Source of the DNA: Clostridiales bacterium
GTDB lineage: Bacteria > Bacillota > Clostridia > Monoglobales > WRBX01
Direction of reading: 5' to 3'
DNA: 44,212 bases
NCBI GenBank assembly: GCA_031263785.1
Contig: JAISFC010000010.1
Location: 1 to 44,212, forward strand
Position numbers and translations under genes: made by a program. Below the pieces are notes generated by a model. It worked only from the letters and a program-made list of their open reading frames with translations, was not told where the DNA came from and ran no database searches. Below, piece after piece: positions 27,044-33,280 of this stretch (positions are counted from its first letter, which is position 1; every line of letters begins with the position of its first letter).

Positions 27044-30000
27044 CTAATACATCGTCACCACCAGCGGCAACGGCTGCATCCTCGTCTTCCCGAGGTATCG
27101 CAGCACCGTCGTATAATCCGCGGCATCCACCCCCAAATACTCGTTTATATTGTAAATCGTCGTGATCCCCTCAATATTATCATTCCCCACCTGCCCCTTA
27201 ATCGTGTTCAGGTCCGCCGTCGTTATCGCATACTTGTTCACGCTGTTCAGGTAAAACGCCCCCGCATATAGGTACGCTATATCATTAATCGACAGCACCG
27301 ACGCCTCCGTCAGCCCCCCCACATTCATCTTCGTCCCGTCAATGTACATCTCCGCCCATAGGTAGCTCTCCTGCCTCACCGTCCCAACATCCCCGCCGTT
27401 CGACCCATATCGGCTAAACCTCAACATATACTTCGGCGCACCTGTGTCGGGGTCGCTCAGCGCAATCGCCTCCGCCAGCTCCTTCGGTATCCTCATCTCC
27501 CAATTGTATACCGCCAAACTCTTGTTCGCCATCACTCCCGTCATGTTCATCGGCTGCGTGTACACTATATCCTCCACCCGCCCGATAATCGTCCCGTCCG
27601 TCTCCACCTCATATAACTCCACCCTGATCCCCGCGTCCATCCTCTGCAGGTCCGGCGTGTAGTTTAGGTCCGCAAAATATGCCCGCTGCTTCCCCGTCAG
27701 CACCGCCCGCCCGCGCAATGTCACCTCAAAATCCGTTATCTCGTCGAATATCATCACCTCAACCGTCGGCACCCCCAAGTTCACATACTCGTTCGTCACC
27801 GACTCAATATACCCCGTCGCTAGCACGTACGCCCCGTAATCCCCATAATTACTGCTAATAACCCCCTTGCTCCCGCCCATCCCAAATAGCGGATCCTGCT
27901 GAATCCCGTTGAGATTGCTATACTCCTTAATGTGGAACGGCACATTAAACTCCGAATCGTCCCTAACCTTGTAATGAATCCTAAAATACGGCGTCTGATT
28001 CTCCACCGTATGCGGCACGGACGGCAACGATTGCCCCTCCAGCACCGCCCAACTCAGCAGAAACTTCCCCGCCGCGTTGATAACACTCACCACCTCCGTC
28101 GACGAATCATAAGGCGTCAAATCGCTCAGGGACGTCCCGTTCACCACCACGCTCCCCAGCCCCTTTATGTCAAAATCAATCGTCTCAAGGTCGGTAATCT
28201 CAATCTTGTCGTTGTCGAATAGGAACGGCAACGCCATCGCAAACCCGTCCAGCCCATATGGGTTCTCAAAAGAAACATCAATCGTCCCCTCCATCCCCAC
28301 CTTCTTCTTCGTGTCGTCGGGGGACATAAGCACACTAATCGCGCCCGCCTGCAGCACCTGGCTGTTGATATCAAACGCCACGCGGGTGTACGCCTTGCCA
28401 TAGACGCTCTTGCCCGCCGTAACCTTCACCAGCTCCTCCGCCGCCGTCTCCCTCAGCCAGAAATATACCTGCCCGACGGAATCCGTGTAGACGTCCTTGA
28501 TTCCATAAACGTTGCCCGCCGGCGCCTGCGCCATGTCCACATTGCCGATTTTCCCGCTCAATACCTGCGCGTTCGCCACCGCGGGTCTGCCCACCTGCCA
28601 TATATTGTAGTACACATTTTGGTTCGAGTTGTTTCTCGGTCGCGGACCCTTAAGATTATTAACGTACACGCTCCCGCCGTTAATTCTAACCTCCCCCACT
28701 CCCTCATAAACGCTCCCGCCGCCGATTGCCGCGCCGGTGTCACCGTTTGCTATCGCCCGCACGGTGCCGCCGTCTATCATGATTTCTGCCCTGGTCTGGA
28801 ACTGCATCCCCGTCCTTCCGCCTATTCCCGCGCAGGATACCATGCCGATTGCGGTCACACTCCCTCCGGTGATAGTTACGATGCTGCCCTGATTCTGGAC
28901 GCCAATCCCCGCGCCGGCGCTGCCGTCCGTGGGTCCGCTTGCAACAATATCGCCGCCGCTGATAATTACATTCACTTGGACGCCGTTACCATCGGCTGAA
29001 TTGCCAAGACCAATCCCCGAACATAGATTTGATCCCCCCGTCGCCCTTACCTTTCCTCCCGAAATATTAATGTAAATACGGGAATTGCTACCGGCGGAGA
29101 GTCCATAGCCTATTCCCGCGCCGCTGACGCTGGTTGCCGTAATGTCGCCTCCGGATATATTAATGGTCCCTTGCTGTTGTGATGCAGTGCCTCCGCCTAT
29201 TCCCGCGCCTCCCGTGCCGTAAGCTTTAATTATACCGTCGTATATATTGATTATCCCAAAGTGACCGGCAGTCCCGCCGGTTCCTCCGCCGATAGCGGCG
29301 CTATTATTGCCATACGCTGTAATTTCACCGCCGGCTATGTTAATTTCATTTATAGTGGACATAGTGCCGCCGCTGCTTCCCCCGGTGCCTATGCCCGCGG
29401 AGTTGCCCTTTCCATACACCGTGATTTTTCCGCCGGATATATTAATTTTATCAAGCATATTAAGATATCCGCAGCCGATGCCCGCGCCATAATTATTCCC
29501 GGAGTCTATCGTAATATTTCCTCCGGATATATTAATGGTTCCGGTCGTGCTTATACCGGTGCCGCCTACATACCCATTTCCTATACCCGTGCCGTAGTTA
29601 AAAGTAGGAATCTTGATTATACCGCCGGTTATGGTAATTTCGTCAACGCGCCGACTGCCGCCAATTCCCGCGCCGGCGTAACCACTAGCGTCGTTCATCC
29701 CCCTAGCTTCAATCTTGCCGCCGTTTATCTTAATTATTCCGCTGTCGCCAAACCGACCCGCGCCGATGCCGGAGCCCGTGCCGCCTTCACATATAGCGAG
29801 AATTTCCCCGCCGTTTATCGTAATTTTGCCGCCGTGCCCCGTTATGCCGTTGTTTGACGGGTTTTGCCCGCCGCCGATGCCCGCCGCTTCAGTTGCCGCC
29901 CGCGCTTCTACCTTGCCGCCGTTTATCGTAACTACGCCGTTGCTCCCACGATAGCCGCCGCCAATGCCCGCGCTGGTGCTGCCCCCCCGCGCATATATTG

Positions 30001-33000
30001 TGCCGCCATTTATCGTGATTTCTCCGCTCTCTTTCGTCGTGGCGCTCCCGATGCCCGCGCCTAAGGAGTTTGTCGATGCGTTTAAGCTACCGGGACCGTC
30101 TATAGTTATTTTTGTGCCCGCGTTCACTTCCAGCGCAGCGTGGTTCGTCACTCCATAAAGTATATTCGTCCCCATAATCACCAAGTTCACCGTCGTACCC
30201 GTGCCGTCAAGCAGAAATGCAGCGCTGTCCGCCAGCCCGTTCATGTTCATATGTACATTCACCAGCGCGACATTCGCGGTAACCCCGGTCGCCACCACGA
30301 TTCTGTATTTAGTTAAAGTCGCATTTTCATTCACAATCATATAATCGCTGTTGCTCGCGAGCGTTATAACGCCGCTCATCTCCGTCCAGCCGGGACCACC
30401 GGCAGATAGGTCGTTAAGCGACAAATCAATTGTCCCGGGACCAACCAAGGTTTTCATCTGCGTGGTCGCCCCGCGCAAATAGCTCCCCGAGTAGGTTATC
30501 CCCATCAGCTTAAACTTTATTTCCTCCTCCACCGTGCCGCTGTCGTTCGTCATCGGTAGGTAGAGGTACAATCTGGAGTTGCTGTCCGTGTATACGTCCC
30601 TAATTCCATACACCTTCAACGTCGCGTTTGCCGTCTGCTCGCACCCAATCGTGTCAATTACGCCGCTCGTCACCTTCGAGTCCGGGAAGGACGGGTTCAA
30701 AGTGAGCGTATTCCTGTAGACGTCCAGCCCCGCGCTATTTTTAGGCGCTATAACGCCGCCGTTCACCGCGCGCACGCTCCCGCCGTTTATCGTCAGCGAT
30801 GCCTCCGAGCCGTCCGTCGTGGAGCTCGCCCCCAAGCCTATATCGTTTTGCCCCGTCGCGGTTGCACGGGTTGTCCCGCCGTTTATCGTGATTGCAATAG
30901 CTTCGTCCGAGGACCCCCCTGTGCCGATTCCCGCGCCGCTCCCGCCGCCTTGCGCCGTTATCCTGCCGCCGTTTATCGTTATTTCAGTCGAGCCGCCCGT
31001 CACCGTTCCGCCCGAGCCAATCCCCGCGCCCGCTCCCTTGCCCAGCGCGTCTATCGTCCCTCCGTCTATCGTAATCGTGCCGCCGTTGCTCCCTTTGCCG
31101 CCGCCTATCCCCGCGCCGCTTCCGCCGCCCGACGATGCCGTTATAGTTCCGCCTGTTATATGTATCTCCCCTGCCTCGCAGCCGTCCGAGCTGCCTATCC
31201 CCGCGCTGTCCGCGCCGCCCTCCGCCGTTATATTTCCGCCGCTTATCGCTATTTTGCCCGCCTCGCCGCCGATGCCCGCCGCCTTTTGCCCGCCGCCCGT
31301 CGTCCAAGTGTACGCCCAAATAGTCGCTTCGCCGGTATCTTCCGATATAATAATCTCATCAACCGTCCCGCCGTCGCCCGCTCCGATTGCCGAGCCGCCA
31401 TTGCCGCACCAAGCATCAACATCGCCGCCGCTTATCGTTATCTTGCCCACCTCGCTGTCCGTTCCGCCGCCGATTGCCGCGCCACCGCCCGAGGACCCCA
31501 CGTCTATAGTGCCCGCTGATATAACAATTTCGTCAATCTTGCCGCCCTCGCCCGCGCCTATTCCCGCGCCTTTAGCTCCAACGCCATTGTTAGTTGTTCC
31601 AATGTTAATCGTCCCGCCGTCAATATTAATAGTCCCCACCGTGCCGCCGCCGATTCCCGAGCCGCCATCCACGGTCATAACCTTATCCTCGGAGTTTTTA
31701 ATGCTTATTTCGCCGATGGACGCGCCCTCGCTTGCGCCTATTCCCGCCGCTTTTGTGCCGCCCGTCGCCGTAAACGTTGTATTATCTTCTATTATAATGC
31801 TGCCTTCCGAGCCGTCAGTACCCTTGCCGACGCCAATCGCCGCGCCGCTACCTTCATTTAATACGTTCACATCGCTTCCGGTAATCTCAATCGTGCCGCC
31901 CCATCTCGTATCCACGCCCGTGCCGATAGTCGCCCCGGCGCCCTCGTTGCCCGCCACGATAGTCGAGTTCGTAATCGTGATATCCCCCGCCGAACCGCCG
32001 CCAATTGCGGAATTACCGCTCATTCCGGTCGATGTAATTTTAGAGTTATCTATCTTAATATCACTCGTCCCTTTGAACGACGCGCCTATTCCCGTCCCGT
32101 AGCCTAAGCCGGATTGACTTACTTCATTTGTCTGCACGACATATCCACCGCTATTTATCGTTATCACGCTGTGGTTGCCGTGCGTCTTCGTCCCGCCGCC
32201 GCCGCCAATTGCCGCCGCCTGCCCGGGGTTATCCTTCGTGTCCTCATCCGTACTGCCGCTTGCCCAAACCTGCACGATACTACCAACTATATTTATTTCG
32301 CCGCCGTTTACCGTTGTCGCCGCGTCCGTGGCATACCCGCCGCCGATTCCCGCGCCCCACTCACCTGCCGCTACCACGTTCATCTCAACAGATCCCGTAT
32401 TTCTTATATTTATTACTCCCGCGTTCGGGTTGCCGCCAAGCCGCTCATCGCCGCCGCCTATGCCCGCCGTATAACCAATAGCATTTAACGTCGCTCCACC
32501 CCAATACGGTCCGGAGTTCTCTATTATCAATTCCGCGCCCTCCGGCACGTAGATTCCCGTATTATCTTTCGATTGAATGGTGGTGGCGTAATGCGGATGT
32601 CCGCCTCCTGCTACTGAATACACTTGCAAAGTCACTTTTGCTCCCTCGCCTATTGATAGTGCCGGGAGACCGGTTTCCGTTATTATGCTATCGCCGTACA
32701 TATATATAACCGCTTCCACTTCCATAGCTACGGCAAAACTATGCGTCCAATTAGCGGTGGCTATTTGATAATTTCCGTTCTCCGTGATTGTAATTATACC
32801 GTTCTGAACTACCCACCCCGTGTCTCCTTCGCCCTCAACTTCGGAATCTATCGTTACCCATTCGTCGGCTGCCTTCGCCACATTTACATCATCCACATCA
32901 TTTATCTCCGGGTTGGGCATTAGAGCCAATATCATGGCGGACATCAACAAAACCGCCCATATTTTCCTCCATTTTGCACTCATCATTATCTTCCGCAACC

Positions 33001-33022
33001 CCTTCCACATGCTCCCCCGCAC
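27044..33022 (-). CDS. 1992-aa secreted beta-helix repeat protein with cohesin-like and dockerin-like C-terminal regions
   Basis: N-terminal signal region; dozens of ~20-25-aa repeats of the form 'xGxItIsGGxIxAxGxxxxAGIGGG'; C-terminal 'MEGTIDVSFENPYGLDGFAMALPFLFDNDKIEITDL' and 'INEYLGVDAADYTTVLRYLGK'. Start codon uncertain. Confidence 0.85.
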   Translation of the reverse strand: MRGSMWKGLRKIMMSAKWRKIWAVLLMSAMILALMPNPEINDVDDVNVAKAADEWVTIDSEVEGEGDTGWVVQNGIITITENGNYQIATANWTHSFAVAMEVEAVIYMYGDSIITETGLPALSIGEGAKVTLQVYSVAGGGHPHYATTIQSKDNTGIYVPEGAELIIENSGPYWGGATLNAIGYTAGIGGGDERLGGNPNAGVINIRNTGSVEMNVVAAGEWGAGIGGGYATDAATTVNGGEINIVGSIVQVWASGSTDEDTKDNPGQAAAIGGGGGTKTHGNHSVITINSGGYVVQTNEVSQSGLGYGTGIGASFKGTSDIKIDNSKITSTGMSGNSAIGGGSAGDITITNSTIVAGNEGAGATIGTGVDTRWGGTIEITGSDVNVLNEGSGAAIGVGKGTDGSEGSIIIEDNTTFTATGGTKAAGIGASEGASIGEISIKNSEDKVMTVDGGSGIGGGTVGTINIDGGTINIGTTNNGVGAKGAGIGAGEGGKIDEIVISAGTIDVGSSGGGAAIGGGTDSEVGKITISGGDVDAWCGNGGSAIGAGDGGTVDEIIISEDTGEATIWAYTWTTGGGQKAAGIGGEAGKIAISGGNITAEGGADSAGIGSSDGCEAGEIHITGGTITASSGGGSGAGIGGGKGSNGGTITIDGGTIDALGKGAGAGIGSGGTVTGGSTEITINGGRITAQGGGSGAGIGTGGSSDEAIAITINGGTTRATATGQNDIGLGASSTTDGSEASLTINGGSVRAVNGGVIAPKNSAGLDVYRNTLTLNPSFPDSKVTSGVIDTIGCEQTANATLKVYGIRDVYTDSNSRLYLYLPMTNDSGTVEEEIKFKLMGITYSGSYLRGATTQMKTLVGPGTIDLSLNDLSAGGPGWTEMSGVITLASNSDYMIVNENATLTKYRIVVATGVTANVALVNVHMNMNGLADSAAFLLDGTGTTVNLVIMGTNILYGVTNHAALEVNAGTKITIDGPGSLNASTNSLGAGIGSATTKESGEITINGGTIYARGGSTSAGIGGGYRGSNGVVTINGGKVEARAATEAAGIGGGQNPSNNGITGHGGKITINGGEILAICEGGTGSGIGAGRFGDSGIIKINGGKIEARGMNDASGYAGAGIGGSRRVDEITITGGIIKIPTFNYGTGIGNGYVGGTGISTTGTINISGGNITIDSGNNYGAGIGCGYLNMLDKINISGGKITVYGKGNSAGIGTGGSSGGTMSTINEINIAGGEITAYGNNSAAIGGGTGGTAGHFGIINIYDGIIKAYGTGGAGIGGGTASQQQGTINISGGDITATSVSGAGIGYGLSAGSNSRIYINISGGKVRATGGSNLCSGIGLGNSADGNGVQVNVIISGGDIVASGPTDGSAGAGIGVQNQGSIVTITGGSVTAIGMVSCAGIGGRTGMQFQTRAEIMIDGGTVRAIANGDTGAAIGGGSVYEGVGEVRINGGSVYVNNLKGPRPRNNSNQNVYYNIWQVGRPAVANAQVLSGKIGNVDMAQAPAGNVYGIKDVYTDSVGQVYFWLRETAAEELVKVTAGKSVYGKAYTRVAFDINSQVLQAGAISVLMSPDDTKKKVGMEGTIDVSFENPYGLDGFAMALPFLFDNDKIEITDLETIDFDIKGLGSVVVNGTSLSDLTPYDSSTEVVSVINAAGKFLLSWAVLEGQSLPSVPHTVENQTPYFRIHYKVRDDSEFNVPFHIKEYSNLNGIQQDPLFGMGGSKGVISSNYGDYGAYVLATGYIESVTNEYVNLGVPTVEVMIFDEITDFEVTLRGRAVLTGKQRAYFADLNYTPDLQRMDAGIRVELYEVETDGTIIGRVEDIVYTQPMNMTGVMANKSLAVYNWEMRIPKELAEAIALSDPDTGAPKYMLRFSRYGSNGGDVGTVRQESYLWAEMYIDGTKMNVGGLTEASVLSINDIAYLYAGAFYLNSVNKYAITTADLNTIKGQVGNDNIEGITTIYNINEYLGVDAADYTTVLRYLGKTRMQPLPLVVTMY

Positions 33023-33046: not shown

Positions 33047-33075
33047 ATTTAATCACACTTGTAACAAAATTGCAA
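33047..33075 (-). promoter_or_regulatory. promoter of the 1992-aa gene, -35 inside a repeat array
   Basis: Minus strand TTGCAA-17 nt-TTAAAT. Confidence 0.5.
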
Positions 33076-33129
33076 CACTTTTTTTTATTTGTAACAAAAA
33101 TGTAATATTTCTGTAACATTTCTGTAACA
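33060..33129 (-). promoter_or_regulatory. array of six GTTACA-like hexamers, mostly 11-bp phased
   Basis: gtaaca/gcaaca/gtaaca/gtaata/gtaaca/gtaaca at 33061, 33072, 33091, 33102, 33113, 33124 on + strand. Confidence 0.7.
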
Positions 33130-33245
33130 TTTCTCCCGACACCCCCACCGCCATTTATCCCCTTTTCCCCCCATAACCACCGACTAAATTAACATTCCAC
33201 CATCCCCCCCCCAAAATAACACAAATCCCCACTTCCTCCCCAACA

Positions 33246-33280
33246 AAAAAAAGACGCCGAAGCATATTCAGCGTCTTTTA
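33246..33280 (-). terminator. terminator of PIN module 1
   Basis: AAAAGACGCTGAATATGCTTCGGCGTCTTTTTTTT on minus strand. Confidence 0.75.

What the first reader, a model, noticed from the sequence alone, without database searches (positions are those of the whole stretch)
33047..33129. 11-bp-phased GTTACA array overlapping the promoter of the giant surface protein
Six hexamers (GTTACA x4, GTTGCA, ATTACA on the minus strand) start at 33061, 33072, 33091, 33102, 33113, 33124: spacings 11, 19, 11, 11, 11. Hexamers with 5-bp spacers on one helical face are the established layout for PhoB/OmpR-family response regulators. The -35 (TTGCAA, 33070-33075) lies inside the array with a TTAAAT -10 at 17 bp. 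It suggests cooperative activation or repression of the 1992-aa gene.
Basis: partly seen in the sequence, partly recalled or inferred. Interest (0 to 1): 0.6.

Follow-up and report, generated by a model that had tools for sequence, protein, structure and literature searches.

The report
WalR-box array at surface-protein promoter
The repeated 11-bp DNA motif in front of this giant surface-protein gene is real, and it is one of about 40 such arrays in this genome that look like docking sites for WalR, the bacterium's master cell-wall regulator, suggesting that this organism wired much of its surface-protein repertoire to its cell-wall sensor.

Summary
Four RTTACA hexamers at exact 11-bp steps lie at 33090-33128 (minus strand). 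They are not chance: the two-unit core occurs 29 times in the 1.45-Mb genome and 0 times in the reversed-pattern control. The genome holds about 40 such arrays of 2-6 units. Most precede secreted or surface proteins (BspA-LRR, beta-helix giants, SLH, subtilase); some precede ftsZ, sepF and nrdD. The OmpR-family guess is right; the best candidate is WalR/YycF. The other strand reads TGTAAY-N5-TGTAAY, fitting WalR's TGTWAH-N5-TGTWAH. The genome has one WalR and one unlinked WalK. In relatives the arrays precede amidase, D,D-carboxypeptidase, mreB, ftsA, NlpC/P60, dnaA and an M23-walR operon. PhoU is absent. The array ends exactly 14 bp before the -35, a spacing found in 15 of 53 arrays from other Clostridia (no other offset above 2). 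By the S. aureus position rule this predicts activation. No binding or expression was tested. New variant of a known kind: unusually long arrays and a regulon greatly expanded onto surface proteins.

The parts
33090..33128 (-). Phased array of four RTTACA hexamers (33123-33128, 33112-33117, 33101-33106, 33090-33095) with 5-bp spacers; reads TGTAAY-N5 on the plus strand. Proposed WalR (YycF) binding sites.
   Evidence: unit consensus from 43 arrays of this genome
33076..33089 (-). 14-bp A/T-rich stretch between array and -35; the spacing is shared with 15 of 53 arrays of other Clostridia.
   Evidence: alignment A1
33060..33065 (-). GTTACA in the promoter spacer, not conserved in the paralogues; probably not an array unit, though an extra site cannot be excluded.
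33047..33055 (-). Extended -10 TG-A-TTAAAT (33047-33052 plus TGA at 33053-33055); the paralogues read TG-A-TAGCAT here.
   Evidence: 17-bp spacing counted
27044..33022 (-). 1992-codon frame of the giant secreted surface protein: signal-like N-terminus and Beta_helix_3 repeats (PF18889). A later ATG (33010 or 32983) may be the true start.
   Evidence: alternative starts read from the sequence
33249..33279 (-). Terminator-like hairpin upstream of the array, suggesting that the giant gene is transcribed from its own promoter.

Best explanation
The array is a multi-copy binding site for the WalR (YycF) response regulator of a Clostridia-like bacterium. Phosphorylated WalR would bind the four 11-bp repeats as two adjacent head-to-tail dimers on one face of the helix, just upstream of the -35, and recruit RNA polymerase to the TTGCAA-17-TG-A-TTAAAT promoter, activating the giant beta-helix surface protein. 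The same device, copied along with gene families, puts some forty genes, mostly for secreted or surface proteins, under the cell-wall sensor kinase WalK. Shown: the arrays, their recurrence, their fixed spacing to the promoter, the target genes, and one WalR-like and one WalK-like protein. Inferred: that WalR is the binder, dimer cooperativity, and activation.
For: Plus-strand units TGTAAY-N5-TGTAAY fit WalR's TGTWAH-N5-TGTWAH (consensus quoted in PMC9210968) at all positions. One regulator of the genome is clearly WalR-like (NF040534 322.6 bits, next family 249.6), in the same band as its relatives; a full-length WalK-like kinase is present. Targets in relatives are amidase, D-Ala-D-Ala carboxypeptidase, M23/LysM, 3D/G5, NlpC/P60, MreB, FtsA, DnaA and VEG genes; own genome also FtsZ and SepF. 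In two relatives the array lies upstream of an M23-walR operon. The array is placed 14 bp upstream of the -35, as in 15 of 53 arrays of other Clostridia. WalR sites upstream of -35 activate in S. aureus whatever their orientation, and dnaA is a direct target there (PMC10746227).
Against: No binding or expression data. The curated YycF cut-off (340) is not reached. WalR sites in the literature have two hexamers, not four to six. In own-genome L202 no array lies at the M23-walR locus. Relatives in family f2 have WalR but no three-unit arrays. In other phyla the same pattern lies at phosphate genes, so the motif does not by itself identify the regulator. The coding strand reads RTTACA, the reverse of the usual way of writing the WalR box.
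Confidence: 0.72

Rival explanations
1. Pho box: the array binds a PhoP/PhoB-type regulator (for example the L032 product, which has an adjacent kinase) and induces surface proteins in phosphate limitation.
For: 11-bp TTACA-like direct repeats are typical of Pho boxes (own knowledge); the same pattern lies at phosphate-uptake genes in Nitrospirae, Nitrospinota and Bacteroidetes.
Against: No PhoU; only PstS-like proteins below the cut-off, with no array listed near them; targets in relatives are cell-wall and division genes; hexamer fits the WalR box better than TTHACA.
Confidence: 0.1
2. Another OmpR-family regulator of this genome (L033, L034, L036, L037 or L038) has taken over these sites for surface-protein control.
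For: Seven PF00486 regulators are present; OmpR-family sites look alike; the regulon differs from a typical WalR regulon.
Against: Array-linked targets in relatives and ftsZ/sepF in the own genome match WalR, and the box is shared across the order and other Clostridia, where WalR is the conserved regulator.
Confidence: 0.12
3. WalR (or a relative) binds but represses: the window-only hexamers at 33060 and 33071 extend binding over the -35 and spacer and block RNA polymerase.
For: Two hexamers 11 bp apart overlap the promoter; sites between or below -35/-10 repress in S. aureus (PMC10746227); in relatives some arrays lie below a -10 in front of carboxypeptidase genes.
Against: GTTGCA is the conserved -35 and 33060 is not conserved in eight paralogues, where the upstream array is; these two are 19 bp away, out of register with the array.
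Confidence: 0.15
4. The repeat is not a protein site but a chance A/T-rich tandem repeat or an RNA-level repeat.
For: A/T-rich intergenic DNA; three units form a formal tandem repeat.
Against: 0 reversed-control hits in all 51 order genomes and all 196 class genomes; fixed 14-bp spacing to the -35, so the window array is upstream of the promoter and probably not in the transcript.
Confidence: 0.03

Closest known systems
WalR/YycF box of Bacillota (TGTWAH-N5-TGTWAH; B. subtilis, S. aureus, C. difficile)
   Same: Hexamer, 5-bp spacer and target classes (cell-wall hydrolases, division, dnaA); position upstream of -35.
   Different: Four to six units instead of two; written in reverse on the coding strand; regulon expanded onto large families of surface proteins; walR and walK unlinked.
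HLR1/RpaB of cyanobacteria (RpaB is the second-best NCBIfam match of L035)
   Same: TTACA direct repeats; activation when upstream of the core promoter, repression when within it (PMC6331805).
   Different: Photosynthesis and high-light genes; shorter repeat period (own knowledge); two repeats per site.
Pho box (PhoB of Proteobacteria; PhoP of B. subtilis)
   Same: 11-bp head-to-tail units, multi-dimer arrays, TTACA-like hexamers (own knowledge).
   Different: Phosphate targets; here no PhoU and no phosphate genes seen under the arrays.

Membership tests
WalR (YycF) binding site | Two or more TGTWAH hexamers with 5-bp spacers | tested here: met
   Four TGTAAY hexamers in exact 11-bp register; consensus from PMC9210968
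WalR (YycF) binding site | A WalR orthologue encoded in the same genome | tested here: met
   L035 is YycF-like by a wide margin, same band as the order; 65-68% identical to WalR of the M23-walR operons. The curated cut-off itself is not reached
WalR (YycF) binding site | Sites at cell-wall hydrolase and division genes | tested here: met
   Relatives: amidase, S11, M23, NlpC/P60, MreB, FtsA, DnaA; own genome: FtsZ, SepF
WalR (YycF) binding site | Direct binding and walR-dependent expression | not testable with these tools
   Needs footprint, EMSA or depletion
Pho box | Arrays at pst/pho genes of the same genome | tested here: not met
   PhoU absent; no array listed near PstS-like genes; genome 92% complete
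Pho box | TTHACA hexamers (B. subtilis PhoP, own knowledge) | tested here: inconclusive
   RTTACA matches 5 of 6 positions

The most novel reading that the evidence does not exclude
In this lineage the WalRK cell-wall sensor has become the master switch of the surface coat: WalR arrays, spread by duplication with gene families, set some forty surface proteins together, while (AG)n tracts just behind the start codon of one family switch single members on and off, combining global and stochastic control.
Probability: 0.4. Interest if true: 0.65.

Novelty: new variant of a known kind. Interest (0 to 1): 0.52.

Why it matters
WalR is essential in several Bacillota and is known for a modest set of autolysin and division genes with two-hexamer sites. 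If these arrays are its sites, then multi-dimer WalR sites exist, with a fixed geometry (14 bp to the -35; one helical turn between promoter classes), and in one lineage the cell-wall sensor has taken over much of a large surface-protein repertoire. The geometry also gives a sequence rule for predicting WalR-activated promoters in uncultured Clostridia.

Tried and rejected
Pho regulon: rejected as main reading (no PhoU, no phosphate targets). The two promoter-proximal hexamers as array units: rejected on the paralogue alignment. An RNA element in the conserved leader of the beta-helix family: no Rfam match. Presence or absence of WalR as a discriminator: uninformative, since 50 of 51 genomes have a YycF match at the threshold used, including family f2 without arrays. 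The automatic promoter scan missed the window promoter (by my count 8 of 12 matches, its threshold is 9), so paralogue alignment was used. The automatic -10 call is unreliable for the MLKK family; its CATAAT at 26 bp was read by eye. Literature searches for multi-unit WalR arrays or a surface-protein WalR regulon found none in the held library, which is not proof of absence.

Full report
Observation. On the minus strand the order is GTTACA (33128-33123), GTTACA (33117-33112), ATTACA (33106-33101), GTTACA (33095-33090), then 14 bp, TTGCAA (33075-33070), 17 bp and TTAAAT (33052-33047). In the window the two-unit pattern with up to one mismatch is found 4 times against 0.55 expected, with none of 100 shuffles reaching 4.

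The array is a genome-wide element. GTTACAN5RTTACA occurs 29 times in the 1.45-Mb genome and never in reversed form. With one mismatch allowed in RTTACAN5RTTACA the figures are 157 against 24. In the stretches fetched around the matches I counted 43 distinct arrays, 38 of them with four to six units in register (one mismatch per unit allowed in extension), with unit consensus RTTACA-WWWNT. Of 35 arrays with a readable downstream frame, 26 face a protein with a signal-like N-terminus, against 58 of 169 background frames (odds ratio 5.5, one-sided p = 1.5e-5). The signal test is a simple hydrophobicity rule, one gene is counted twice because it has two arrays, and gene families are not independent. 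Families recognised: BspA-type LRR, Beta_helix_3, SLH, subtilase. Divergent genes at arrays include FtsZ, SepF, a ClpC-like ATPase and anaerobic ribonucleotide reductase.

The window promoter. The window gene carries the same Beta_helix_3 repeats (PF18889) as one of these families. Aligning the window with eight paralogous promoters shows array, AAAGTRTTGCA, spacer and GTGTGAT in common. The paralogues read TG-A-TAGCAT where the window reads TG-A-TTAAAT. A terminator-like hairpin at 33279-33249 separates it from the gene before it.

Geometry. In the own genome the distance from array end to the extended -10 is mostly 26 bp (LRR family and single genes) or 37 bp (beta-helix family, one SLH gene), one 11-bp turn apart. 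These promoters are partly paralogous. An independent test uses arrays from other Clostridia in a named collection: a TTGNNA-17-TWNNNT promoter starts exactly 14 bp past the array in 15 of 53, with no other offset above 2. The window has the same 14 bp. In the order relatives a TGnTAnnnT lies exactly 10 bp from the array on the TGTAAY strand in 11 of 47 cases, many of them orthologous. The offset criteria were set after I had looked at the sequences.

Which regulator. The genome has seven OmpR-type regulators. Of the six scanned, one (L035) is clearly the YycF/WalR type: 322.6 bits against 249.6 for the next family; the curated cut-off of 340 is not reached. The same band, 311-341 bits, holds for nearly all genomes of the order and only 3 of 51 pass the cut-off, so I read this as a lineage offset. 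A separate 582-aa kinase is WalK-like over its full length. WalR is preceded by an M23/G5-type peptidase gene and followed by a DNA polymerase III-like frame, not by walK (those neighbours named by eye). In two relatives the array lies directly upstream of an M23-walR operon, which would make walR self-controlled there.

Targets decide between WalR and Pho. In relatives of the order the arrays sit at N-acetylmuramoyl-alanine amidase, D-Ala-D-Ala carboxypeptidase, 3D/G5, M23/LysM, NlpC/P60, MreB and DnaA genes, and in named Clostridia at MreB, FtsA, VEG and Peptidase_S11 genes. These are largely the classes WalR controls elsewhere, and dnaA is a direct WalR target in S. aureus (PMC10746227). 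In Nitrospirae, Nitrospinota and Bacteroidetes the same pattern lies at phosphate-uptake genes, so the motif alone is not enough. The own genome has no PhoU and only weak PstS-like genes without arrays nearby.

Mechanism. Shown here: arrays, phasing, fixed promoter spacing, target classes, presence of WalR and WalK homologues. Inferred: that WalR binds, that four units hold two dimers cooperatively, and that the outcome is activation. The last step rests on the S. aureus finding that sites upstream of -35 activate, that sites between or below -35/-10 repress, and that orientation does not matter (PMC10746227). The cyanobacterial RpaB/HLR1 system follows a similar position rule (PMC6331805).

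How unusual. Among 196 genomes of the class, 35 have any exact three-unit array, the reversed control has none, and this genome has 37 hits against 9 for the next; overlapping registers count separately. The expansion onto surface proteins is the remarkable part; the regulator and the basic box are known. The organism's name could not be read from the tools. Most of the named array-bearing contigs belong to uncultured Clostridia, and the genome is called Clostridia-like here on that basis and on its WalRK content.

Noticed in passing
L010, L013, L028, L031, L188, L199, L200 (own genome): LRR surface-protein family with an (AG)n tract right behind the start codon (ATGAAAAAACGTGATTATTCT(AG)n), n = 13 to 27; the long frame is in phase with the ATG in L188 and L199 and out of phase in L010, L013, L028 and L031. 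This looks like slipped-strand phase variation of surface proteins.
   Followed up: partly
L202:7955-8677 and L225:1006-2754: walR and walK homologues lie on different contigs (C9 and C37); walR follows an M23-type peptidase gene.
   Followed up: partly
L017, L020, L025, L026, L027, L189, L192: Beta-helix family shares a highly conserved 5' leader (GTCAGACAGAAAAGTCCTTACGCGCGGACGAGAGCC...) with a possible hairpin; no Rfam match.
   Followed up: partly
L022, L055, L067: Arrays lie upstream of anaerobic ribonucleotide reductase genes (NrdD) in the own genome and in other Clostridia (L067 judged by eye).
   Followed up: partly
L044, L056, L058, L085, L100, L112: The same four-unit pattern precedes phosphate-uptake genes in Nitrospirae, Nitrospinota and Bacteroidetes, so OmpR-family boxes for WalR and PhoB look alike across phyla.
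   Followed up: partly
window 33204-33212: Run of nine C (nine G on the coding strand) about 75 bp upstream of the array; a possible slippage site.
   Followed up: no
L013, L014, L015, L017, L021, L026, L185, L200 (own genome): Many array-controlled genes are cut by contig ends shortly after the promoter, so these repeat families probably break the assembly and the true number may be higher (L185 is cut by the stretch fetched).
   Followed up: no
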